A stretch of DNA of 64,000 nucleotides. It comes from a virus. Every line of letters starts with the position of its first letter. Position 1 is the stretch's first letter. Below are positions 1 through 53,974 of the stretch, piece by piece. A program made the translations under genes and the position numbers. The notes under the pieces were generated by a model. It saw nothing but the letters and a program-made list of their open reading frames with translations, was not told the origin of the DNA and did no database searches. The DNA lies in IMG/VR virus record IMGVR_UViG_3300031920_000373, positions 37,490-101,489 of that record. One strand, given 5' to 3'.

Positions 1-368
1 TCACTATCGCCTCTATGGTAGCATATAAGAGAGGACTGAACGCTGTTGTTACTGGTGTTTGCCAAACAGATTATTCGGGATATCCTGATTGCAGGAACGC
101 CACAATGAGGGCATTAAATGAGGCAATCGTGAAGGGCTTGGATAAAGCTATCTTGATCAGTACACCTTTGATGTGGTTGACAAAAGAGGAAACTGTCAGA
201 CTGGCTCAGTCATTTGAAGGCTGTATGGAAGCTCTGGCATATTCTCATACTTGTTATAATGGAGAGTATCCTCCCTGTATGCATTGTCCCTCATGCTGTT
301 TAAGGACAAGAGGATTCAAAGAAGCAGGTGTAAGGGATCCACTGATTGTGAGGTACTATGATAAGTAG
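1..368 (+). CDS. queC: 7-cyano-7-deazaguanine synthase QueC, C-terminal part (cut by window edge)
   Basis: QueC converts 7-carboxy-7-deazaguanine to preQ0 using ATP and ammonia. The frame is open to the left edge, so the gene starts outside the window; the family is usually about 220-230 residues and about 122 are present. Visible signatures are the substrate-binding DYSGYPDCR motif, the PLMWLTKEE segment, and the C-terminal zinc cysteines in HTCYN...CMHCPSC followed by LRTRGF. The stop overlaps the folE start by 11 bases, so the two are translationally coupled. queD and queE, needed for the same pathway, probably lie just to the left. Confidence 0.93.
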   Translation, partial: TIASMVAYKRGLNAVVTGVCQTDYSGYPDCRNATMRALNEAIVKGLDKAILISTPLMWLTKEETVRLAQSFEGCMEALAYSHTCYNGEYPPCMHCPSCCLRTRGFKEAGVRDPLIVRYYDK

Positions 369-38545: not shown

Positions 38546-38983
38546 TTAAACTACACAAGGTGTATTTTTAAGGTTATTAATCAGCACTTCTCTTTTAATT
38601 TCAAAGTGGCAAAAATTAACGGACTTCCTATTCATACCTGACCATTGTAATTCAGGACAAAGATCAAGCACTGAATTTCCAAAAAGAATATACCAAGAGT
38701 TAGTGGTAGTATCTCTTAAATTCCATGACCATTTTGTATCAAAGTAAACGTAATCAACAGCGGTTGCGTAAAGAGGTGGAACGTTTTTTAAATTGAACAA
38801 ATGTCTGGATATGATATCCTTAGTCTTACCTTTATTAACCAGCATTTCATGACGATCATGATCTCTACCAGTTTCAAATAATCGAATAGGCATATTATGT
38901 GCGTCAATAAGTTGGGAACTGATTCTTCTGACACATTCAGCCAATATAGGATGAAGTACGTCTATTGTCCTTTTGATTTTCAT
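38546..38983 (-). CDS. Endolysin, M15 L-alanyl-D-glutamate peptidase type
   Basis: 145 residues. The T5-lysin plan is seen: VLHPILAECVRRI near residue 9, FETGRDHDRHEMLVNKGKTK near 37, SRHL (zinc His) near 60, AVDYVYFD near 75 (zinc Asp) and NFCHFEI near 124 (zinc His). The spacing between SRHL and AVDY is longer than usual by about ten residues. It would cut the peptide side chain of peptidoglycan. Overlaps the upstream gene by ATGA. Confidence 0.82.
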   Translation of the reverse strand: MKIKRTIDVLHPILAECVRRISSQLIDAHNMPIRLFETGRDHDRHEMLVNKGKTKDIISRHLFNLKNVPPLYATAVDYVYFDTKWSWNLRDTTTNSWYILFGNSVLDLCPELQWSGMNRKSVNFCHFEIKREVLINNLKNTPCVV

Positions 38984-39210
38984 ATATTAAATTCCTTATA
39001 AGTTTGGGAACTTTTAGTTCTGCCTATAATAGTACCATTCTTAATCACAACTGACTGTCCTGGTAAATAAATATCAGCGGCTTCAGCAATATACTTCCTA
39101 CTTTTTCTGTCAATAACGGAGTAAGATGTATTGCCAACTCTATTCACAATCGTCACTATCTTGGATACTTCTTCTGAGGAAGGCGTAATTAATGAAGTGA
39201 TTGGATCCAT
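38980..39210 (-). CDS. Hypothetical small virion-region protein, 76 aa
   Basis: Beta-rich (VNRVGNTSYSVIDRKSRKYI, LPGQSVVIKNGTIIG). Shares a base with the previous gene's stop. The pattern of a small barrel suggests a structural or adaptor protein. No family recognised. Confidence 0.62.
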   Translation of the reverse strand: MDPITSLITPSSEEVSKIVTIVNRVGNTSYSVIDRKSRKYIAEAADIYLPGQSVVIKNGTIIGRTKSSQTYKEFNI

Positions 39211-39551
39211 TATAAATTCCTCTCTATGGTCATGTTCGTGGCAGTTGAAAAGACATCACCACTCTTTTTGAGGGACAATTTTATGCTTTTCAACATGCCA
39301 TTAACAATTATGCCATCATCATTTATCCCCACAAAACTTCCAGGGTATGCGTAAATCCTTGATGCAAGAGATATGTTGGAATTTATACGATTGGTATAGC
39401 CTTCATCAATCTCAACCCTGCCACGCTCCAATGCCACATCCTCATTTGTTAAGAGGACTTCGGAGATATCATTGCCCCAATTCAATGCTGGATCAGTCTC
39501 TTTGCATTGACTTGGAAATGTGTTTCCTCTACATACCTTTATTCCGATCAT
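39210..39551 (-). CDS. Hypothetical virion-region protein, 113 aa
   Basis: MIGIKVCRGNTFPSQC start, then NWGNDISEVLLTNEDVALERGR, a segment I associate with baseplate or tail-tip assembly proteins but cannot name. TAGGAGCATAATGTC before the ATG. Confidence 0.6.
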   Translation of the reverse strand: MIGIKVCRGNTFPSQCKETDPALNWGNDISEVLLTNEDVALERGRVEIDEGYTNRINSNISLASRIYAYPGSFVGINDDGIIVNGMLKSIKLSLKKSGDVFSTATNMTIERNL

Positions 39552-40098: not shown

Positions 40099-42129
40099 TT
40101 AAATTGTCTCTAATTCCGGTACATAAACCTGTGCATAAGCATTAAGCGGTCCTCTGACTGTCCATTTCCAATATTTCGTTTTATACTTAATCCTCAATAA
40201 GGATTCTTTCAAACTATCATCTTGTGTAATGGCTGTCAACGTTCCATTTTCAGATATCTGAAAGGCTCCCATATCTTCAGCCACCCATTCCCAATCAATA
40301 ATCTCATAGATCGGGAAATTAGTTGTTCCAACCCAATCAATAAATTCAACATATTCCCATTCTTCTTCATCTTCTGTGAAGTCTCCAGGGAGGCTGGCCT
40401 CTATATAAGAGGAGTCTTTAACAACTGAAATAGTGGGACCACCCGAAGTCACAAGTTCAAAAGGACCTGAATCAAAAGGAACTCTGAATCCTCTAATTAT
40501 TTTGGTGGTGCCGTCAACATCAATTTCTACCAATTTAATATCTGCCGCTGAACTGCCCTGGTCTGTGATTAAGAAGGCATTTTTACCTTCATTTATAATC
40601 ATAGAATCGGCAATGGATACTATATCCGTTTCAGAACTAAAAATTACGGAGGGTATAGTTACATCCCATAATGTTGGAGATACAGGGTATTTACTGGTAA
40701 TCAACATATCACCATTAGGTTTAGTTTGGATAATCCCTCCTACTGCATTTACCACTTTCTTTATTACAGCAAAGGGTGTTTCATCATTTGCAGAAATGGC
40801 ATAATTAGGAATAGCCCAATCAATTATATCCCAATCAACTGCGATACTTTGATAATCTGCCATTTGTTGTACAAGTGCGGAAGCATAAATCCCATCAGTG
40901 AAACTCTTTACCATTGTTTTAGAATAGGGTGAATCCAGTTTCGCTGTAGGACTTATCATATCTATTGCCCAAGTGGCACCAGTGGCGTTTGTTTTCTTCT
41001 TTCCTCTGGTTTCAATAAAGAGATTAAAAGTCACACCATCAATTATGCATGCCACCTCTCCATCCACTGGACAATTTTGATAATCAACCTCGGATGCTAA
41101 TTCCATGTTTCCGATAATAACGTATTTATCCATTCCTGCTTCTATATCGACTGAAAAGAAATCAATAGGAGTGCCATTTACTTCCACAGAAACACTTACT
41201 GTATTTTCCACCGATGTTTCCGATACCAAATAGTAAGGCATAGAAAAATCATTTGTTATTTTATTCAAGTTCTCCAATTCATAATTTTGTTCAAATGATG
41301 CAATGATATCCGTAGATGATATTCCCCAGGATTCATTTACAACCAATGTTGCTCCTGTAGTGAAAACATACAATTCAGTTACTTGGTTTCGTGATAATAA
41401 TGCATCATTATACCTCTGTTCAATTGCTTTGTATAATACTGAAGTATCTCCGTAAAATTCAGCATATGTTTTAAGTGTTGTAGGTCTATTTCCGTACAAT
41501 AAGTCTTTAGACGAAATAGAAAATGGAGCATCATTATAAAATTCCATATAAAATTCAGTAGCTACGGGTGAATCTGTATATGGTAAAATTTTAGAACTAA
41601 CAGAACAAGGTTTATCCTCGTACAACTCAATGAAATTCTTAATAGGTACAAGTGCGTCTGAGTATCTTAAAGAAATAATCCTTTTAAGAATAGAAGAATC
41701 AGCATAGTATTCATTAATAAGTGCAAGTGAGACTGGTTTATCTCCATACCACTCTACACACGTTATTCCCATCTTTAATCCATAGATCTCAGAAACAAAA
41801 TTTATATTAGGACGAGAAATACCCCAAATTTCCTCAATTGCTTTTATATTATCCGTACTAAAGGAATAGAACTCCTCAAAAACATGCGCAAGAGGAGGTG
41901 GTAATATCCACGGTAAATCAAACGCTCTATATGCATACGTATAATAAATCCATTCCTGATCAAAACTATGTACCGCATAAATATAGGAGGAGTAAGGTTC
42001 GTTAAATGTAGCTCTAACAGAGGTAATAACTGTACCTAATTCAAAATCTAATCTACCATTAGTTGGCGGAGTATAACCACCAACTAATGTAAAACTCACC
42101 TCTATTTCTGGAGGAACATATACTGCCAT
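40099..42129 (-). CDS. Tail-tip protein with seventeen 14-residue aromatic repeats
   Basis: 676 residues. After about 43 residues an array of 14-residue units runs to about residue 270, each with an aromatic at the same place and often YxDxP (ELYEDKP, EFYNDAP, EWYGDKP). From about 290 on the protein changes to a beta-rich domain (VSVSVEVNGTPIDFFSVDIEAG, then ITSKYPVSPTLWDV) resembling the structural core of siphovirus tail-tip/hub proteins. GGAGAAATAAA before the ATG. The repeat region could be an adhesin or a fibre shaft. Confidence 0.7.
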   Translation of the reverse strand: MAVYVPPEIEVSFTLVGGYTPPTNGRLDFELGTVITSVRATFNEPYSSYIYAVHSFDQEWIYYTYAYRAFDLPWILPPPLAHVFEEFYSFSTDNIKAIEEIWGISRPNINFVSEIYGLKMGITCVEWYGDKPVSLALINEYYADSSILKRIISLRYSDALVPIKNFIELYEDKPCSVSSKILPYTDSPVATEFYMEFYNDAPFSISSKDLLYGNRPTTLKTYAEFYGDTSVLYKAIEQRYNDALLSRNQVTELYVFTTGATLVVNESWGISSTDIIASFEQNYELENLNKITNDFSMPYYLVSETSVENTVSVSVEVNGTPIDFFSVDIEAGMDKYVIIGNMELASEVDYQNCPVDGEVACIIDGVTFNLFIETRGKKKTNATGATWAIDMISPTAKLDSPYSKTMVKSFTDGIYASALVQQMADYQSIAVDWDIIDWAIPNYAISANDETPFAVIKKVVNAVGGIIQTKPNGDMLITSKYPVSPTLWDVTIPSVIFSSETDIVSIADSMIINEGKNAFLITDQGSSAADIKLVEIDVDGTTKIIRGFRVPFDSGPFELVTSGGPTISVVKDSSYIEASLPGDFTEDEEEWEYVEFIDWVGTTNFPIYEIIDWEWVAEDMGAFQISENGTLTAITQDDSLKESLLRIKYKTKYWKWTVRGPLNAYAQVYVPELETI
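41290..42000 (-). repeat. Array of seventeen 42-base coding repeats
   Basis: Aromatic residues at 46, 60, 74, 88, 102, 116, 128, 142, 156, 170, 184, 198, 212, 226, 240, 254 and 268 of the protein give an exact 14-residue period with one 2-residue deletion. Nucleotide repeats have diverged while the protein pattern is kept. Confidence 0.9.
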
Positions 42130-43508: not shown

Positions 43509-43811
43509 TTATTTCATTATCTCACTATACCTACATTTTTTACACCCAAGTATCAATAACTTTTCTGCATTTATTATAGGTAATAATATTCCTTCATCAC
43601 ACATAGGGCATTTATACCCTTGTCTCTCTTTATGAACTTTGGTAATTACCTCTTTTTGATGTTTTTTACCAACTACTATTCTTAGTTGTAAATGATCCTC
43701 TATTTCTTTTTTTAAAACAGATATAGTATCAATTCCTTCTCTCTCACAAATAGTTAATAAGGCGATTGCATTTTGTAAATCTCTTCCTGTAAATGCTTCA
43801 AAATTTAACAT
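43509..43811 (-). CDS. Zinc-ribbon protein in the tail region, 100 aa
   Basis: Helical first half; C-terminal YKCPMCDEGILL and LGCKKCRYSEIMK form a zinc ribbon. ATG 43811 with AGGAGTGGAT is preferred to the GTG at 43817. Unusual among virion genes; could be an assembly factor. Confidence 0.65.
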   Translation of the reverse strand: MLNFEAFTGRDLQNAIALLTICEREGIDTISVLKKEIEDHLQLRIVVGKKHQKEVITKVHKERQGYKCPMCDEGILLPIINAEKLLILGCKKCRYSEIMK

Positions 43812-45784
43812 ATCCACTCCTGAACATAAATAGCGTTATTATACATTTTCCATCCGTACCCTGCTTGACAAGTACATTCCGGGTAACAATCCTGGTAAAT
43901 AGTGCTTGGTTTACAATAAGGAGTATGCTCCGGATTTAATAAAAAACCACAAGCATCCTCCGATTCCGGAAAGGATACTTCCCCTGCATTCATTACAGCA
44001 AGAGTTACTGAAATTACGCCATTTATAGACCAACCAGCATAAGAGCTTGTTATTGGTTTGGCACACGCCGCACCACTTCCCGGAGCATAAATGTCCCAAC
44101 CATTTGTTGGACAAACAGGACCACACGCTTCACTTACATATTCAAATAAAGTATAGGAAGTATAAACATTTTGTGAATATTTATACTTCCCTTCATACGC
44201 TATTGCTGTACTTCCTGAATATTCAGTAGCTACAAAAGTTCTTGGATAAAGAGATGCTGAGTACTCAACAGCAACACCCCACCCACCCGCCGTAGATCGT
44301 ACAGAACCACTTGTATCAGAGCATATATCCTCAATATTTACAACACACATACCACAAGCATCCATATCAGCATAAAGAGTAACATACTGCTTTGTTGTAA
44401 TTATGGTTGTTTTTGAATGTACAGGATCTAAATAAAAACCTTCACCATTGACAGAAACAGTGGTGAGGCCTCCTACAAAACCGCCTGTCCAATAAACCAT
44501 TCCAGCTGTATCAGGAGCTATAGTATCCACACTATTTATTTCATCATATAACAAAGAATCATAAGATTCAGAATCACAACATCCTTTAGGATTAACCTCT
44601 TGAACATATTTAATAGTCCCACAAACTCCGTCCTCTGGACCTACCCCAACTAATATAACTCGCTCATCATGAAAGGCATTATCTAAATGAAAATCTGGAC
44701 CCTTTATTATACCGGCACCCCCTAACCAATTTGATGTTCTAACCTCGCAAGAAGGAAGACTAACCTGAGCCTCAACAGTAGAAACACAGCAATTGTCTAC
44801 ATAAAAATCCTCTTCACTTCCCTCCCATGTCTCTTCTTCATAACAAGGAACATACGTGTTTATATGTCTCGCCTGCCACCAAAAATTCAAAGCACCTTGT
44901 TCTGTATCCGAATGAGGTGTTGCGGGGGAATCTGGACAGGGTACTTCTGCAACAACACTGTAAGAATCCTTAATATTACCCGAACATTGGCATATTTGAC
45001 TATAAATATACCTTTGATAACAAACATCAAGATCAGTTGGTTCCTCTGATTCATCGGGAGTGCTTTTCCCATTTGTTGAAGATATGGGATTACACCCTAA
45101 AAGATTTACGGCAGTTGCATCCTCTGTTGGTTTGCTCACATTTTCACTGTAGGCGATCTCTTTATAAAACACAATACATTTTGCATCTTGTGCCTCAGAA
45201 TCAGTACCGTTGACTTTAATGGTTACTTTATCATATTTAGTAAGGTAAGAAAATGACAGATGTTTTGTGTAATCATTTTTCAATAATGCCCGTGCTCCTA
45301 CAAAAGATACAATTTCTTCATCACATTTGATATGGCCTACAATAGGGTAATCCACCTCAATTTTTCTTTCTTCAGGAAATACTAATGTTTCTATTGTTTT
45401 TTCTACCACCTCGGTACTAAGAATAGTCCCATCATTAATAACCAATTTATAAGGAATATCAAAATGAGATCTATAAATATACAAAGTTGCCTCATAACTA
45501 TATGAATTGGCATCATATTTACAAGGATCATAACTTATAGAACCAAAAGCAACAGATAGGAGTGGTTCCACTTCTTCTTCTTCAAAGACTTTGGCTTCTT
45601 GACCTCCTACTAAAGCAGAATCCTCATTACAAGGATCAATATCATATATGGAATCAATTACGGTTGCGGCATCAGATAAAGATACAAAATCTGATTCAGG
45701 TGGCTGTACTTCAATCCTTGCCCAGAATTTTTCAGTAAGCCCATCAACACTTCCAAAATTTACGTTTATATTTACATCATTCAT
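43805..45784 (-). CDS. Large Cys-rich tail protein, paralogue C
   Basis: 659 residues with about 30 cysteines, many in pairs or CxC/CxxC (NCCVST, KGCCDS, ACGMC, CYPECTCQ). The N-terminal 230 residues share the plan of the two upstream genes: DLLYSM-like LVINDGTILSTEV, conserved strand segments and an Ile/Val-rich end. ATG 45784 overlaps the upstream stop by 8 bases (ATGAATGA). Disulphides in a mature virion protein, or metal sites, would both fit. Confidence 0.65.
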   Translation of the reverse strand: MNDVNINVNFGSVDGLTEKFWARIEVQPPESDFVSLSDAATVIDSIYDIDPCNEDSALVGGQEAKVFEEEEVEPLLSVAFGSISYDPCKYDANSYSYEATLYIYRSHFDIPYKLVINDGTILSTEVVEKTIETLVFPEERKIEVDYPIVGHIKCDEEIVSFVGARALLKNDYTKHLSFSYLTKYDKVTIKVNGTDSEAQDAKCIVFYKEIAYSENVSKPTEDATAVNLLGCNPISSTNGKSTPDESEEPTDLDVCYQRYIYSQICQCSGNIKDSYSVVAEVPCPDSPATPHSDTEQGALNFWWQARHINTYVPCYEEETWEGSEEDFYVDNCCVSTVEAQVSLPSCEVRTSNWLGGAGIIKGPDFHLDNAFHDERVILVGVGPEDGVCGTIKYVQEVNPKGCCDSESYDSLLYDEINSVDTIAPDTAGMVYWTGGFVGGLTTVSVNGEGFYLDPVHSKTTIITTKQYVTLYADMDACGMCVVNIEDICSDTSGSVRSTAGGWGVAVEYSASLYPRTFVATEYSGSTAIAYEGKYKYSQNVYTSYTLFEYVSEACGPVCPTNGWDIYAPGSGAACAKPITSSYAGWSINGVISVTLAVMNAGEVSFPESEDACGFLLNPEHTPYCKPSTIYQDCYPECTCQAGYGWKMYNNAIYVQEWIC

Positions 45785-46679
45785 TGTCACACCCTGTTCC
45801 ACCTAAATCAGATCTGACTGTATCAAGAATCTCGCCTGTGCAAGTTGAATAATAAATTGTAGTGGAATACGTTTGATTTTCCTCAGTGTCTAATATACTA
45901 CCAGCACATCGGGGCCATAATGTAGGATACCCATCATCACATTCAGCTAAAAAATCCAGTACAGGTTTTGGTATTTTTAACTCAAGCATCTCTTCTTGTT
46001 CCTCTCCATTCTCATCTATATAGGTACAAATCACACTACACCTCACATTGGTAATAGAAGTATAAGAAGTTTGATTGGCTATTATTCCAAATATTTCAGC
46101 CCTGCCTGTTTGTGACTTAGGAAATGATAGGGTTGCGGTGTATTTATATCCCTGGGCCATTATATTTGCACGAACAATACCGAATACATCTTGTGTGAAT
46201 GTAAGATAAGGTCCATTTACAGTTATATCGGGTGAATCTAATAAATGTCCTAAATCATCATAAACAGGAGATTCCCAACCAAAAGAGGATACCACAGGAT
46301 CAATCAGATAAGGCATTTGCACTTTATCATCCAGTGGAATTACTATATTTCCCACCTTCGGTACTGAATCATGAATCCGACTGGACAAAGAACCTTGATT
46401 AATTGTCATAGAATAAAGCAAATCCATGTTGGAAGGGAATACCCAAAAATCCAATTTAATCTCTATAGTTGTAGGGGTGAACATTACATAATCAAGGCTT
46501 GTAGGAACATAAGAGAAGGATGTTAATCCAGATGCAGATCTATTTATCATTTGAAAAATATCAAATAGATTGGCATCTAAAGAGGTCTCAGGTATTACTT
46601 CCTGTTCCATCTTTACCCATATTTCCTGTTCGTTTATGTCTGCACTACTAAAATCAACTGTCTTTATTGCTGTACTCAT
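45777..46679 (-). CDS. Tail protein, paralogue B
   Basis: 300 residues. SSFGWESPVYDDLGHLL to FGIVRANIMAQGYKYTATL and GRAEIFGIIAN aligns with SYSWLGSVYDSFGNVV to YGTLKVEYQVTQHKYSLKV and GTDLFGAVVYG of the 46746 protein. Seven cysteines near the C-terminus. GAAGGGAAATG lies before the start. Beta-rich virion protein. Confidence 0.65.
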   Translation of the reverse strand: MSTAIKTVDFSSADINEQEIWVKMEQEVIPETSLDANLFDIFQMINRSASGLTSFSYVPTSLDYVMFTPTTIEIKLDFWVFPSNMDLLYSMTINQGSLSSRIHDSVPKVGNIVIPLDDKVQMPYLIDPVVSSFGWESPVYDDLGHLLDSPDITVNGPYLTFTQDVFGIVRANIMAQGYKYTATLSFPKSQTGRAEIFGIIANQTSYTSITNVRCSVICTYIDENGEEQEEMLELKIPKPVLDFLAECDDGYPTLWPRCAGSILDTEENQTYSTTIYYSTCTGEILDTVRSDLGGTGCDNE

Positions 46680-48656: not shown

Positions 48657-49037
48657 TTATACTTCTATTAAAATTAGTTGTCCAGAATACAAATCACCGA
48701 CTGCCTGATTCGGACGAGGAATTAAAGGAGTTACTTGAACACCCCCTGCCTGAATTTTGACATCATAATCAGTACCCTCATAATGAAAAACTATTGTGGA
48801 TCCTGCTTGTTCAAGGAACTTGAACTCAATTATTTGTGACCTGGTAAAAAACCCTTCATAAGAGCTATCACTTGCCACAGCAACAAGGTTAATTGTTCTA
48901 CCTTTTGATAACGGTAAATTCTGAATAACCAAATTACCTAATATGGTTCTTTGGGTGTTCTGGGAGATGGCTGGATTATCAAACTCATTCTCCCAAATCA
49001 AATCCTCACTTAATGTCTCTCCATTTAATGTTATCAT
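48657..49037 (-). CDS. Tail protein following the tape measure, 126 aa
   Basis: Beta-rich (MITLNGETLSEDLIWENEF, IIEFKFLEQAGSTIVFHYE). The place right after the tape measure is that of distal tail or minor tail proteins. ATGA overlap with the tape measure gene. Confidence 0.65.
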   Translation of the reverse strand: MITLNGETLSEDLIWENEFDNPAISQNTQRTILGNLVIQNLPLSKGRTINLVAVASDSSYEGFFTRSQIIEFKFLEQAGSTIVFHYEGTDYDVKIQAGGVQVTPLIPRPNQAVGDLYSGQLILIEV

Positions 49038-52000
49038 GTTGCAAACCTTTTTAAATTATTTAAATGAGTGGTTAACTGGCCAACAACGTCCTGTTGCACT
49101 ATGGCGGGTATTCTTGCTGTGCCTGTATCTAAACTTATTGTGCCAAAATTAGCAAGACTTCCTAAGATGGAGCTTGATTTTGTTGCAGTTGAATTAGGAA
49201 CAGAAACTTTGCCACCATTTTGAAACTTAGGTAATGTCATGTTGTTTATGCTGGACATAAAATCATCTCCAAACTTCCTAACTGCAAACTTGTTAATAAC
49301 CCATTCACCATCCTCTGCAAGGATTTGTCTCCTATCGCCCCCCCCAAATCCTGGAAGTCTTCCTCCTCCCTTGTATCCTGTAACAGATTGGCCTTGTGTA
49401 ACATACTTTGTTGTTATAGTTACTACTTTGTCCTTAAGTTTGTCAATAGATTTTTGAAGGTCTTCAACATCATCTTTTCCTAATACTTTTGCAAGAACAT
49501 CCAGAACAGTATCATGAATATTTTCCAGTAACGATTGAGTTTCAACAACCTCTGTATCATCCACTTCAATTTCCACTGGTGTATCTGATATCCCATCAAG
49601 GGTACTGCCCACAAGTTTGGCAAGCTCAGGGAGGGTCTTTAAAAATTCATCAAATCCCATATCCAGTTCACTCTGGGATAAGGCGTATTTGTCTATCTCA
49701 TTTTTCGCCACAGTGTACTTTTCTTTTATGGCATTTTTCTCTGCCTGAATATTCTGTAATTCATTAGCAGATCGTTGATCTTCGGCGGCCAAGGCTTTAG
49801 CATCTTCAGCGGTCGTATCAACTGTGGGAGCGGACTGTAATCTACCTGTTGCTATTCTGATTTTTTCCTCGTACTTGGCAATCTCTGCATCCAAGTTTGA
49901 CATTTCCTCTTTATGTCTACTTGCCTCTTTTGCGGCTATCTTATCAATGGCATCAATGGCAGCCTGAACCTTTGTGTCATAAAAGACTTTCTCTCTTGCC
50001 TGTTTTTCGGCGGCTTCAGCAATTTCCTCATTCTTCTTTTTAAGAAGGTCGAGTTCTTTTAATTCACCTTTTATATTCCGGGCATCTTTCAAGGAAGCAA
50101 GGGTGTCCCGTACTAATCGAACTGCGGTCCTTTCATCTTTTAAACCACCCACAAGACTTTCCGACATCTTTATTAGATCAGTACCACGATCAAGTTTCTC
50201 TTTGTCCTTTTCAGCTTCAGCCTGTGCAAGTAGTGTACGGCCTTGGGCAAGATACAGTAGGGCGGCTCTTTGGTCATCTGCATCTTTCTGGGCATCGGTA
50301 AAACTTCTCTGCTTGATATTCCTTATTTTTTCTTCTGTGGTAATTTCAAGACTTAGAATATCAGAAGAGGTAGAGGCTCTATTATCTTGGATATCTTCAT
50401 TGATATCTTTGAGTTTGTCCTGGAGGGCCTTTTCAATTGAAATCCTTTTGTCCTTATAATCTGTTGCCAGTTTTTCTAAATCTGAGTTCCTTTTGTCGGT
50501 AATCTCAACAAGCTTATCAGCATTCTTACTGGTTTCAGATTCAATATCCGAATGAGCATCAGCTATTTTTTTATTGGAATTAGTTACCTCTTTATTATAA
50601 GTATTGATATATTTGGCACGGGCTTTATAAAACACCTCTTCAGCTTTTAGAACTATTAGGTGGCGCTTGTCGTACTCTGCCTTATTTTCTTCCTCTGTAA
50701 CCATGCTCTGGAATCGTTTGGCTTCCGTCAACATATCCTGATACATTTGTGTCTGGATAAGTAAACGACCCGCCGCGGCATCATCAGCATTAATTAAACC
50801 CCTTGCCTCTTCATCTGCAACATCTGCAATGTATTTAGCGGAAAGATTTTTTCTTTCAACCAGATAGGCTTTATAATCATCCTCCTGTTGTGAATAATCA
50901 ATGGAGATACCTTCAAGGAGTTTTTTCTCTTTTTTAATGTATTCCCTGGTTGCCTCTTCTTGGTGTTTTATGCGGAGCTTGGCGTTGGTCTTATATTTTA
51001 CCGCAATTTCCTCTAATTGTTTATCTAAGGCTTCCTTTTCATGCTGAAGGACAATTATGCTTTGGGCGGCGGTATTTTCAGCTAATTCCTTTTTAAGATC
51101 AGAGGCTTGTTTAAGTAGCGCCCTTTCACCTGCGTAATAGTTTTTCCAACTTTGTTCTATACTGATACCTGCCTTTTCTTCAGCCTTTTGTATTTCCTTC
51201 AATGACTCTAAACGATCAACGAGCCTTTGCCTCTGGGCGGCATTCTCCCTGATCTGAGCCTCTTCTCCATCTGAGAATACTCCACCTAATTTTTTGTATT
51301 CTTCAATGAAATCAGTAACGGCAGTTGTTCCATCTTCTCCCCATTTCTCAATGATGTTTTCAAAAGAGCCTGAACTGGCTTCTTTAAGGAGTTTGATCTT
51401 TTCAATGACGGCGGTTAAAGCTGTTCCTGTGAGACCCGCGTCCTCTGCAACTTGCTGGATACTTTCAATAGTATCATCAAGGCCTATCTTATTTGTTTCC
51501 ACAAGGAATTTAACAAATTTATCTGCCTGTTCTGTAAGTATCTCGTAACTGCGGATCAATTGTTTTTGCTGGGCATTCAATCTGGTATGATCGAGTTTGG
51601 CAACATAATCACCAAGTTCTTTCATATTCACGGAACCACTTGCTATCTCTTTAGCAAAATCTCTGGCCTCTGTGGCTCTTTTACCGAACCCCACAAAATC
51701 CTCCGTGAATAAGTATTTCCATTGATTCCAATCTGCAATGGCTTTATTAACAATCCTGCCCATAAGGCTGTTTTGTTCTGCAATGGCTTGATTAACTTTA
51801 TTGCCCGCCTTTGCTAAATTATCAAACTGGAGTCTATCTAATTCTTCATTGTATTTTTTTAAAGCATCAGCCCCTTCATCAATCTCACCTGTGAGAGGAT
51901 TAATACTGGCTGCCGCGTCCTTTGCAAAGGATGATATATCTGTGTAACCAGAGGCGGTTTCTAACAAGCTTTTCCTTAAAGCTTTATTGGCATCAGTTAA

Positions 52001-53974
52001 TTCTTTTGACCCTTCTTTAAATGAGGCTGTCTTTATTTCATAATCCTGGAAGCTTTTGGCAAGGGTGCCAAAATTGTCAGCAAGTTTAAAGAACTCCTCT
52101 GAGGTAGTTTGTGCGTCCTCACGGAGAATTATAAGCAAAGCACTAAGGGCAAGTAATCCTATTCCTATAGGGCCAAGCACTGCCAAGAATGCTCCCACAC
52201 CTGTGGTAGCGGCTCCCATAGAAGCAGTAAAAGATACCACACTTGTAGCCATTGCCTGGAACAGTGTGGATTTCATGGCAAGACTTACAGCCCCCATGAC
52301 GGCAGCAAGAGCATAACCTGCCGCTACTGCTAATCCTGCGGATACAATGAACTTTCCTAACGCTGTATCAACCAGAGCAGTTAATACATCAATCAAATCA
52401 CGGGACACGTTGATCACAATCCTCATGGCATCGGCTATACCTGCTTTACCTAAAGTGATTGCAAATATACCAATCTTGTCTTGTAAATTCTTAAAAGACA
52501 CGCCGAGACCTTCCATCTGAATGGCGGCTTGTTGGGCGGCGGTACCTGATCGTCCTACTGTCTCAAGCATTCCTTCAAAATTAGATTCAGTGCTTGACAG
52601 AGCCAATACAGCGGAGGCTCCCCTTTTACCAAATACGTCAAAGGCGACAGATGCATCGTCAACTACCAAATTAAGATTGGACATTACACTTGAAAGACTG
52701 GAAGTCCTGGGATCAAGTTCAGAAAGTGCAACGCCTGCCTCTCTGGCTGCCGCCTTCAGTTTCTTGGAGGGATCAATCAGTTCTGCGAAGACTCTCCTGA
52801 GTCCTGTACCGATTGTGGATGCCCTCAAGCCTGAGTTAGCAAGAGTTCCCATTGCTGCCGCAAGCTCTTTAAAAGATACTCCTGAATCTCTCGCAATAGG
52901 GCCTACATAATTCATTGCTGTACGGAGTTTATCAATGGTAAGTTTGGATTTATTTACTGCATTGGCGAAAACATCTGATACCTCGGCTGACTGAGAGGCC
53001 TCTATACGGAATACCCTCATAGCAGTGGTTACTAAATCAACTGTTGAACTCATGTCGGACAAGGTGCCCGTTGCGAGATCTGATACAGCTTGCATGGTCT
53101 CTACCGCTTCACTTGCACTGAAACCAGCCTGTCCTATAGTCCTCATACCCTGAGCTACTTCGGAGGCAGAAAATTTAGTTGTGGATGCTACCTCAAGAAT
53201 CTTTAGGCCCATCTGAGCGACTTCAAGGGTTGTGGCTCCTGTTATTGCTTGGAGATCTTTTAAGGCCTGATCATATTCAATAATGGCAGTGACACCGTTC
53301 AATATAGATGACTTAACAAACTGGAAGGCTTCTGATATTCCTCTGAACTCTAAAACTGTCCGTATCTTATCAGCAAAGGTGCGAATCTTCAATCCTGACC
53401 TGTCTGCCTGTGTTCCTGTATCTTTCATGGCTTTGTTCATGTGATTCATTGAAGAAGCCGCGCTACCAAACGCTAATTGGAGACGGCTGACATCGTTTGC
53501 AAAGTTTTTGAATGCAGAGATACCACCACGCTTGTCAAGATCTTTTAAAGCTGTATTAAGCGAACGGATTTTATTCACTACTCCATTGACATCCAATTCA
53601 ATGAGCTTTTTGAATCCTGTAACAAGGGCTGTTATTCCGGGAAGCTTAATTCCTGATAATTTACTTAATTCCTGAGCAAATTTACTGAGATCAGGAGGAG
53701 TTTGCATCTTCCCTATTTTATCAAAACCATTAGCAATTGCGTTAAGATTTGGAACTTTTATCTTATCCAACTGCTTTAAGGTATTTATTGTCGAGGTTAA
53801 AGTGGGAGGGGGTTTAATAGTATCCAAGGCCGCCTGAAAACTTTTTACGGATTCAGTGGCCTTAGTAACTGACTTCTGGACATTTTCGAATATAGTGGCA
53901 ATGGCCTTTACTTTTGAGGCATCAAATCCTACTACCTGTAAAGCTATTTCCACTGTCTTTCTTACGTCAGCCAT
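49034..53974 (-). CDS. Tail tape measure protein (TP901-type)
   Basis: 1,646 residues, which would measure a tail of roughly 250 nm at the usual 0.15 nm per residue. The N-terminal domain (about 200-460) has the TP901 core: LEVASTTKFSASEVAQGMRTI, GFSASEAVETMQAVSDLA, TAMRVFRIEASQSAEVSDVF and AAAMGTLANSGLRASTIG. Hydrophobic segments (about 545-620, SAGLAVAAGYALAAVMG and FLAVLGPIGIGLLALSALLI) and very long coiled coil follow; near the end a short glycine-rich GYKGGGRLPGFGGGDRR. AAGGAT before the ATG. Confidence 0.93.
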   Translation of the reverse strand: MADVRKTVEIALQVVGFDASKVKAIATIFENVQKSVTKATESVKSFQAALDTIKPPPTLTSTINTLKQLDKIKVPNLNAIANGFDKIGKMQTPPDLSKFAQELSKLSGIKLPGITALVTGFKKLIELDVNGVVNKIRSLNTALKDLDKRGGISAFKNFANDVSRLQLAFGSAASSMNHMNKAMKDTGTQADRSGLKIRTFADKIRTVLEFRGISEAFQFVKSSILNGVTAIIEYDQALKDLQAITGATTLEVAQMGLKILEVASTTKFSASEVAQGMRTIGQAGFSASEAVETMQAVSDLATGTLSDMSSTVDLVTTAMRVFRIEASQSAEVSDVFANAVNKSKLTIDKLRTAMNYVGPIARDSGVSFKELAAAMGTLANSGLRASTIGTGLRRVFAELIDPSKKLKAAAREAGVALSELDPRTSSLSSVMSNLNLVVDDASVAFDVFGKRGASAVLALSSTESNFEGMLETVGRSGTAAQQAAIQMEGLGVSFKNLQDKIGIFAITLGKAGIADAMRIVINVSRDLIDVLTALVDTALGKFIVSAGLAVAAGYALAAVMGAVSLAMKSTLFQAMATSVVSFTASMGAATTGVGAFLAVLGPIGIGLLALSALLIILREDAQTTSEEFFKLADNFGTLAKSFQDYEIKTASFKEGSKELTDANKALRKSLLETASGYTDISSFAKDAAASINPLTGEIDEGADALKKYNEELDRLQFDNLAKAGNKVNQAIAEQNSLMGRIVNKAIADWNQWKYLFTEDFVGFGKRATEARDFAKEIASGSVNMKELGDYVAKLDHTRLNAQQKQLIRSYEILTEQADKFVKFLVETNKIGLDDTIESIQQVAEDAGLTGTALTAVIEKIKLLKEASSGSFENIIEKWGEDGTTAVTDFIEEYKKLGGVFSDGEEAQIRENAAQRQRLVDRLESLKEIQKAEEKAGISIEQSWKNYYAGERALLKQASDLKKELAENTAAQSIIVLQHEKEALDKQLEEIAVKYKTNAKLRIKHQEEATREYIKKEKKLLEGISIDYSQQEDDYKAYLVERKNLSAKYIADVADEEARGLINADDAAAGRLLIQTQMYQDMLTEAKRFQSMVTEEENKAEYDKRHLIVLKAEEVFYKARAKYINTYNKEVTNSNKKIADAHSDIESETSKNADKLVEITDKRNSDLEKLATDYKDKRISIEKALQDKLKDINEDIQDNRASTSSDILSLEITTEEKIRNIKQRSFTDAQKDADDQRAALLYLAQGRTLLAQAEAEKDKEKLDRGTDLIKMSESLVGGLKDERTAVRLVRDTLASLKDARNIKGELKELDLLKKKNEEIAEAAEKQAREKVFYDTKVQAAIDAIDKIAAKEASRHKEEMSNLDAEIAKYEEKIRIATGRLQSAPTVDTTAEDAKALAAEDQRSANELQNIQAEKNAIKEKYTVAKNEIDKYALSQSELDMGFDEFLKTLPELAKLVGSTLDGISDTPVEIEVDDTEVVETQSLLENIHDTVLDVLAKVLGKDDVEDLQKSIDKLKDKVVTITTKYVTQGQSVTGYKGGGRLPGFGGGDRRQILAEDGEWVINKFAVRKFGDDFMSSINNMTLPKFQNGGKVSVPNSTATKSSSILGSLANFGTISLDTGTARIPAIVQQDVVGQLTTHLNNLKRFAT

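What the first reader, a model, noticed from the sequence alone, without database searches (positions are those of the whole stretch)
41290..42000. Seventeen-copy, 14-residue aromatic repeat in a tail-tip protein
An aromatic residue recurs every 14 positions from residue 46 to 268 with one slip of two; middle units carry a YxDxP core. Such strict periodicity over 220 residues indicates a solenoid or stacked fold. I do not recognise this as a known phage repeat. The number of copies can change by recombination, which would alter length or avidity of a host-contact part.
Basis: seen in the sequence. Interest (0 to 1): 0.72.

Follow-up and report, generated by a model that had tools for sequence, protein, structure and literature searches.

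The report
Repeated aromatic arm on phage tail-hub
A virus that infects bacteria carries, at the front end of the protein that forms the hub of its tail tip, a long stretch of about nineteen 14-residue units; relatives carry the same kind of stretch with about five to twenty units, some behind a domain of a kind that often binds sugars, so it is probably a length-variable stalk at the tail tip, but its shape and task are untested.

Summary
ORF 40099-42129 (minus strand, 676 aa) has aromatics at 17 of 17 positions from 46 to 268, 14 apart with one step of 12; Y283 and Y299 extend it to 19 in-phase units. Lag-14 periodicity: 0 of 100,000 shuffles; of 60 window ORFs tested only this one exceeds z 4. 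The C-terminal half is a gp27/Mu-gp44-type tail hub (Z 14.7) in a siphophage-like tail module; the array stands before the hub's usual first residue. The 14-residue unit (F/H/W-x-x-P-Y-x-L) is shared: Vibrio SIO-2-like hubs carry about 5, other viral contigs 9-12 and 19-21. A profile from relatives alone recognises six units at residues 15-84 (0 of 1,000 shuffles), four of them among the nineteen; the rest is tied to the family by phase and position only. Aeromonas phage tail proteins carry near-identical 14-mers at the opposite end. Some hubs in bacterial genomes have an F5/8 type C domain before such repeats. Best reading: a length-variable stalk on the hub presenting host-contact surface. 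Solenoid geometry is unproven: two predictions gave array pLDDT 21-37. No Pfam family or paper on it was found in the searches made.

The parts
40099..42129 (-). 676-aa tail-hub protein with an N-terminal 14-residue aromatic array
41227..42006 (-). array of 19 in-phase units (position-1 residues 42,56,70,84,98,112,124,138,152,166,180,194,208,222,236,250,264,279,295; residues 42-301)
   Evidence: my own register from the unit table
41848..42096 (-). six units (residues 12-94, path positions 15, 29, 42, 56, 70, 84; the first two degenerate) that a profile built only from relatives recognises (score 31.3; 0 of 1,000 shuffles)
40651..41217 (-). gp27/Mu gp44-type hub fold (model residues 305-493)
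   Evidence: 1wru Z 14.7, rmsd 1.9, 165 aligned; 3cdd Z 14.9, rmsd 4.0, 175 aligned
40102..41217 (-). C-terminal part shared with SIO-2-like hubs (residues 305-676)
49034..53974 (-). tape measure protein upstream in the same tail module
39210..39551 (-). 113-aa neighbour; in three relatives (G003, G005, G006) a small ORF downstream of the hub matches the C-terminal part of phrog_6079, so the hub family seems fused in some phages and split in others. This ORF itself matched only phrog_22220 (E 8e-4).

Best explanation
The protein is the gp27/Mu gp44-type hub of a siphophage tail tip. Its N-terminus is extended by an array of 14-residue units of the type F-x-x-P-Y-x-L. Each unit probably supplies one short beta strand with residues 1, 5 and 7 facing the same way. 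The array forms an arm or stalk leaving the hub, up to three per virion if the hub is a trimer like its relatives, with its length set by the number of units. In some relatives an F5/8 type C domain (a type that often binds glycans; recalled) sits on its N-terminal side; in this phage no head domain is seen and the long aromatic arm itself would be the contact or spacer surface towards the host. Shown here: hub fold, periodicity, sharing of the unit and its place among relatives, differences in unit number, F5/8 type C domains N-terminal to some hubs. Inferred: beta structure, outward direction, trimer, host contact.
For: Periodicity. Hub fold with the array before the canonical first residue: model 311 aligns with residue 3 of 1wru. 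The same unit in Vibrio hubs at residues 6, 21, 35, 49, 65 (seeds for P0002 and P0006; sequences), with a last step of 16 as in the window (279 to 295). A profile from relatives finds six window units (0 of 1,000 shuffles, z 8.0) but nothing in the window's hub half (303 of 1,000). 19-21 units in L009 by listing or chain, 12 in L015, 10 in L013, 9 in L010. F5/8 type C hits N-terminal to the hub in 8 of 10 genome-encoded hubs scanned, 6 above the Pfam cut-off (8 of the 10 were picked because they looked so). A 14-mer of the same core at the C-terminus of Aeromonas phage tail proteins. FoldIndex of the array is positive like the hub's (0.15 and 0.15), hydrophobicity is highest at unit positions 1 and 5 in the window and 1, 7, 5 in L009.
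Against: A profile from L009 alone does not find the window array (50 of 300 shuffles reach it), and the window's own profile does not clearly find relatives' arrays (best 5 of 300, L033). Fifteen of the 19 window units are tied in by phase only. Two AlphaFold2 runs give no confident array fold. Of the 8 hubs with an F5/8 type C hit, only 3 (L027, L033, L035) have a profile-detected array at 0 shuffles; L045 fails its leave-one-out test (62 of 400), L028, L037, L039, L041 give 93, 67, 4, 37 of 300. Lag 14 is the top lag in only 10 of 31 terminal parts, 5 of them at P 0.05 or less over lags, and L033 loses significance when His is counted as aromatic. Nothing here tells on which side of the hub the N-terminus leaves.
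Confidence: 0.5

Rival explanations
1. The array is an assembly clamp: each 14-mer is a short linear strand that docks onto repeated sites of the surrounding tail-tip proteins, fixing the hub in the tip, and does not meet the host.
For: P-Y within a short conserved core looks like a docking motif; no confident stand-alone fold; the array sits right before the hub's first strand.
Against: In 13 of the 30 loci L021-L050 the hub match starts at residue 60 or less of the open frame (L047 may be cut short), so it is not needed by this hub family in general; unit number varies about fourfold; F5/8 type C domains occur at the same end.
Confidence: 0.25
2. The array is a flexible aromatic sticker chain without fixed fold that binds glycans or membranes weakly and many times.
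For: Aromatic spacing with otherwise drifting sequence (mean protein identity of units 17%, against 5% for random pieces); low pLDDT.
Against: FoldIndex positive, equal to the hub's; a phase kept over about 260 residues suggests a geometric constraint.
Confidence: 0.15
3. The array is a decayed remnant of a once functional stalk: units near the N-terminal end keep the family core while the middle has drifted.
For: Only six N-terminal units score with the relatives' profile; middle units have a different core.
Against: Aromatics remain at 17 of 17 in-phase positions and the frame is open over its whole length.
Confidence: 0.07
4. Chance periodicity in an aromatic-rich segment.
For: None.
Against: 0 of 100,000 shuffles; same period in some relatives.
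Confidence: 0.01

Closest known systems
gp27 / Mu gp44-type tail hub (phrog_6079, phrog_24698; PDB 1wru, 3cdd)
   Same: Hub fold over residues 305-493 and PHROG matches of the C-terminal half
   Different: An extra stretch of about 300 residues stands before the canonical first residue
Vibrio SIO-2-like siphophage hub (428-450 aa in six translated)
   Same: C-terminal domain, similar order and sizes of the flanking genes, and an N-terminal array of F-x-x-x-Y units with a last step of 16. In one search a five-unit chain is found in P0002, P0004, P0005, P0006, P0007; in P0003 only one unit scores (3 of 1,000 shuffles)
   Different: About 5 units instead of 19; 20-26% identity
C-terminal 14-mer array of Aeromonas phage tail proteins such as BUCT552 (Casjensviridae; related by sequence to the Chi hub 8vjh)
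   Same: Period 14 and unit core L-x-A-P-Y-N-L-R; found by tblastn with the L009 array (E 1e-13 for BUCT552, 3e-14 for PhAER-6; 7 Aeromonas records and 1 weak Vibrio one) and by the pooled profile
   Different: At the C-terminus of a different tail protein; units alike in DNA (mean 73%, max 100%); common origin or convergence not decided; the window's own array finds no phage record
Triple beta-spiral shafts (adenovirus fibre, reovirus sigma1; recalled, no call)
   Same: Short repeat with alternating hydrophobic positions building a stalk
   Different: 15-residue repeat with a Gly/Pro turn (recalled); no structural evidence here that the array is a triple spiral

Membership tests
gp27/Mu gp44-type tail hub | hub fold (tube domain plus alpha/beta domain) | tested here: met
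   Z 14.7-14.9 for about residues 305-493 of the model; the rest of the C-terminal half is barely tested
[quoted passage not shown]
   (tape measure, major tail protein, capsid, portal, terminase on the same strand)
gp27/Mu gp44-type tail hub | trimer at the tail tip | not testable with these tools
   no multimer prediction or virion data
SIO-2-like hub family (phrog_24698) | sequence profile match | tested here: met
   E 7.1e-25, residues 255-652; 11 of 11 members of A3 match
14-residue F-x-x-P-Y-x-L array | period 14 of aromatic residues ahead of the hub | tested here: met
14-residue F-x-x-P-Y-x-L array | unit core recognised by a profile without window sequences | tested here: met
   for six units at residues 15-84 only; the L009-only profile failed on the window (50 of 300 shuffles)
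beta solenoid / triple beta-spiral | solenoid or spiral geometry | tested here: inconclusive
   array block means of pLDDT 21-37

The most novel reading that the evidence does not exclude
An unnamed, widespread 14-residue repeat forms a length-tunable N-terminal stalk on gp27/gp44-type hubs of siphophages and prophages, carrying interchangeable heads (F5/8 type C and others) at its N-terminal end, that is, a tail-tip adhesin with the opposite polarity to the usual C-terminal central fibre; the same module has been reused at the C-terminus of Chi-like tail proteins.
Probability: 0.35. Interest if true: 0.65.

Novelty: new variant of a known kind. Interest (0 to 1): 0.42.

Why it matters
If true, hubs now labelled 'hypothetical protein' carry a receptor-contact arm at the N-terminus, where annotators do not look for it, and unit number becomes a simple, testable measure of reach. 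It would also give a new short repeat for structural study. If the arm is only an assembly clamp, it still explains why these hubs differ so much in length.

Tried and rejected
Pfam scan of the protein and eight neighbours: for this protein only a sub-threshold DASH_Dam1 hit over residues 104-127, taken as spurious (18.7 bits against a cut-off of 26.6; 21.1 bits). PDB sequence searches with P0001 (best E 0.092, a carboxysome-type protein), hub profile A3 and the BUCT552 array: nothing relevant. Tblastn of the window's array alone against phages: no match at E up to 1. BLASTP of the window and L009 arrays: best piece E 0.001 over 38 residues. The L009-only profile failed on the window, P0005 and most genome-encoded hubs, while it found P0004, P0006, P0007, P0011 and the BUCT552 C-terminus at 0 of 300; I then pooled relatives, chose seed units partly by eye, and held the window out. 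That profile does not find L026 (276 of 1,000) although L026 has a strong lag 14 (z 8.6). Two AlphaFold2 runs gave no array fold; the second used a fragment of a relative. Viral-contig scans with the arrays gave nothing beyond the L009 contig itself. A CAP-like head that I thought I saw in L013/L015 and a propeller in L010 got no Pfam hit at E up to 10; neither is claimed. Paper searches showed no paper on this repeat: listings and starts of abstracts seen. Of PMC13243795 I saw the outline, abstract and 12 passages, of PMC11990801 12 passages, of PMC11945409 11 passages; none of these was about such an array. Most subscription papers are not in that library.

Rows left out before counts: one search skipped L001, L012, L014, L016 and L017 as duplicates or the window itself. 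One search left out hubs with an N-terminal part under 60 residues or hub score under 30, and printed no row for sequences with fewer than 4 aromatics (L038 and L042 with FWY). For one search I gave 10 hubs, 8 picked because the text looked discoidin-like, so 8 of 10 is not a frequency. One search covered 398 genomes, found 45 with a match and fetched 30 loci. In one search I picked 60 ORFs from the 102. Whether the genome-encoded hubs lie in prophages was not tested.

Full report
What is there. The ORF at 40099-42129 on the minus strand encodes 676 residues. Aromatic residues stand at 46, 60, 74, 88, 102, 116, 128, 142, 156, 170, 184, 198, 212, 226, 240, 254 and 268, that is 17 of 17 positions, 14 apart with one step of 12. 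The lag-14 count over residues 41-285 is 21; none of 100,000 shuffles reaches it. Of 60 window ORFs that I tested this one has the highest lag-14 z (4.3; the next is 2.3). The phase continues to Y283 and Y299 with steps of 15 and 16, so 19 units can be listed.

What the protein is. Residues 255-652 match phrog_24698 (E 7.1e-25) and 307-497 match phrog_6079, a tail protein. An AlphaFold2 model from an alignment of eight sequences has block means of pLDDT of 72-91 over residues 311-480. That part aligns with the hubs of Mu (1wru, Z 14.7, rmsd 1.9, 165 residues) and MuSo2 (3cdd, Z 14.9, rmsd 4.0, 175 residues), starting near residue 3 of the Mu protein. So the array is an addition before the usual start of a gp27/gp44-type hub. 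The window also encodes a tape measure protein, a major tail protein with Ig-like domain, capsid, portal and terminase: a siphophage-like module, although the virion was not seen. The record is a virus contig of 101,489 bases. The order tape measure, about 126 aa, further genes, hub, then about 175, 113, 76 and 145 aa resembles that of Vibrio phage SIO-2, except that eight genes lie between tape measure and hub here and three in SIO-2; apart from the hub I did not test these neighbours for homology one by one.

Relatives. Tblastn with the whole protein finds 29 phage records, all Vibrio, all through the C-terminal half. The six hubs that I translated have 428-450 residues. Several carry, before the hub domain, the same kind of unit: LV6 and PJ32 at residues 6, 21, 35, 49 and 65 (seeds printed), and two more sequences of the same look are printed. 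The last step is 16, as in the window (279 to 295). Viral contigs L009, L013, L015, L010 and L008 carry longer arrays. The chain search gives 21 units in L009, 12 in L015, 10 in L013, 9 in L010 and a weak 4 in L008 (3 of 300 shuffles).

Is the window's array the same thing? A profile from L009 alone does not recognise it (50 of 300 shuffles score as high). A profile pooled from relatives, with the window left out, recognises six units at residues 15-84 (score 31.3, shuffle maximum 19.2, 0 of 1,000), two of them degenerate and four among the nineteen, while the window's hub half scores at chance (303 of 1,000). The other fifteen units are therefore tied to the family by phase and position, not by sequence. 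In the general test lag 14 is the top lag in 10 of 31 terminal parts (the window, P0004, P0006, P0009, P0011, the BUCT552 C-terminus, L024, L026, L033, L045); five of these pass P 0.05 over all lags: the window, P0009, BUCT552, L026 and L033. L022 (top lag 28, then 14) and L021 (15, 29, 14) also pass. In the other 19 lag 14 does not lead and gives no support.

Wider setting. A search with phrog_6079 in 398 genomes found it in 45. In 13 of the 30 fetched loci the hub match starts within 60 residues of the open frame's start, so without room for a long array (L047 may be cut short). In eight others I saw and then tested an F5/8 type C domain before the hub: 6 above Pfam's cut-off and 2 just below. 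Three of these eight (L027, L033, L035) have a clear array by profile between that domain and the hub; L045 has one by eye but fails the leave-one-out test. A query with the L009 array alone found seven Aeromonas phage records and one weak Vibrio one. In BUCT552 the C-terminus carries 19 units matched by my pattern (20 by the chain), with a mean DNA identity of 73%. There turnover of units at DNA level looks recent; the window's units average 38%, against 28% for random pieces, and no DNA tandem repeat is listed there.

How it may work. Hydrophobicity is highest at unit positions 1 and 5 in the window and 1, 7 and 5 in L009, and the composition is not that of a disordered chain (FoldIndex 0.15, as in the hub); one strand per unit is my inference. 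The F5/8 type C domains at the same end in some relatives, and hubs that do without the array, make a stalk more likely than an obligatory assembly part. I put 0.5 on the stalk, 0.25 on an assembly clamp, 0.15 on a flexible sticker chain.

Novelty. No Pfam family covers the array in the proteins scanned, and the paper searches listed nothing on it; most subscription papers are not in that library. The protein is a new variant of a known kind.

Noticed in passing
43805-45802 (-): A 665-aa protein with 28 cysteines lies among the tail genes; no Pfam or PHROG hit at E up to 1.
   Followed up: no
43509-43817 (-): A 102-aa ORF with two CxxC pairs (zinc-ribbon-like by eye) whose start overlaps the end of the 665-aa gene; it lies in the larger gap between tape measure and hub, eight genes here against three in SIO-2.
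   Followed up: no
records G003 (L010), G005 (L015), G006 (L008): The C-terminal part of phrog_6079 matches separate small ORFs of 106-114 aa downstream of the hub in these three records, so the hub family seems fused in some phages and split in others.
   Followed up: partly
38546-38983 (-): A 145-aa protein resembling an endolysin (phrog_465, E 5.8e-7) sits where SIO-2 has a hypothetical gene of about the same size.
   Followed up: no
L019:1302-5732: The tail protein of Aeromonas phage BUCT552 has 19 or 20 very similar 14-mers at its C-terminus, some identical in DNA, a good case for turnover of unit number.
   Followed up: partly
L015:2748-6041 and L013:3081-6029: These hubs start with further repeats of the type GVAGHLSLTGKTATA before the 14-mer array.
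   Followed up: no
L020:2798-5179: An uncultured phage hub has a different N-terminal repeat (NFSAQLDDFTGAFTA type).
   Followed up: no
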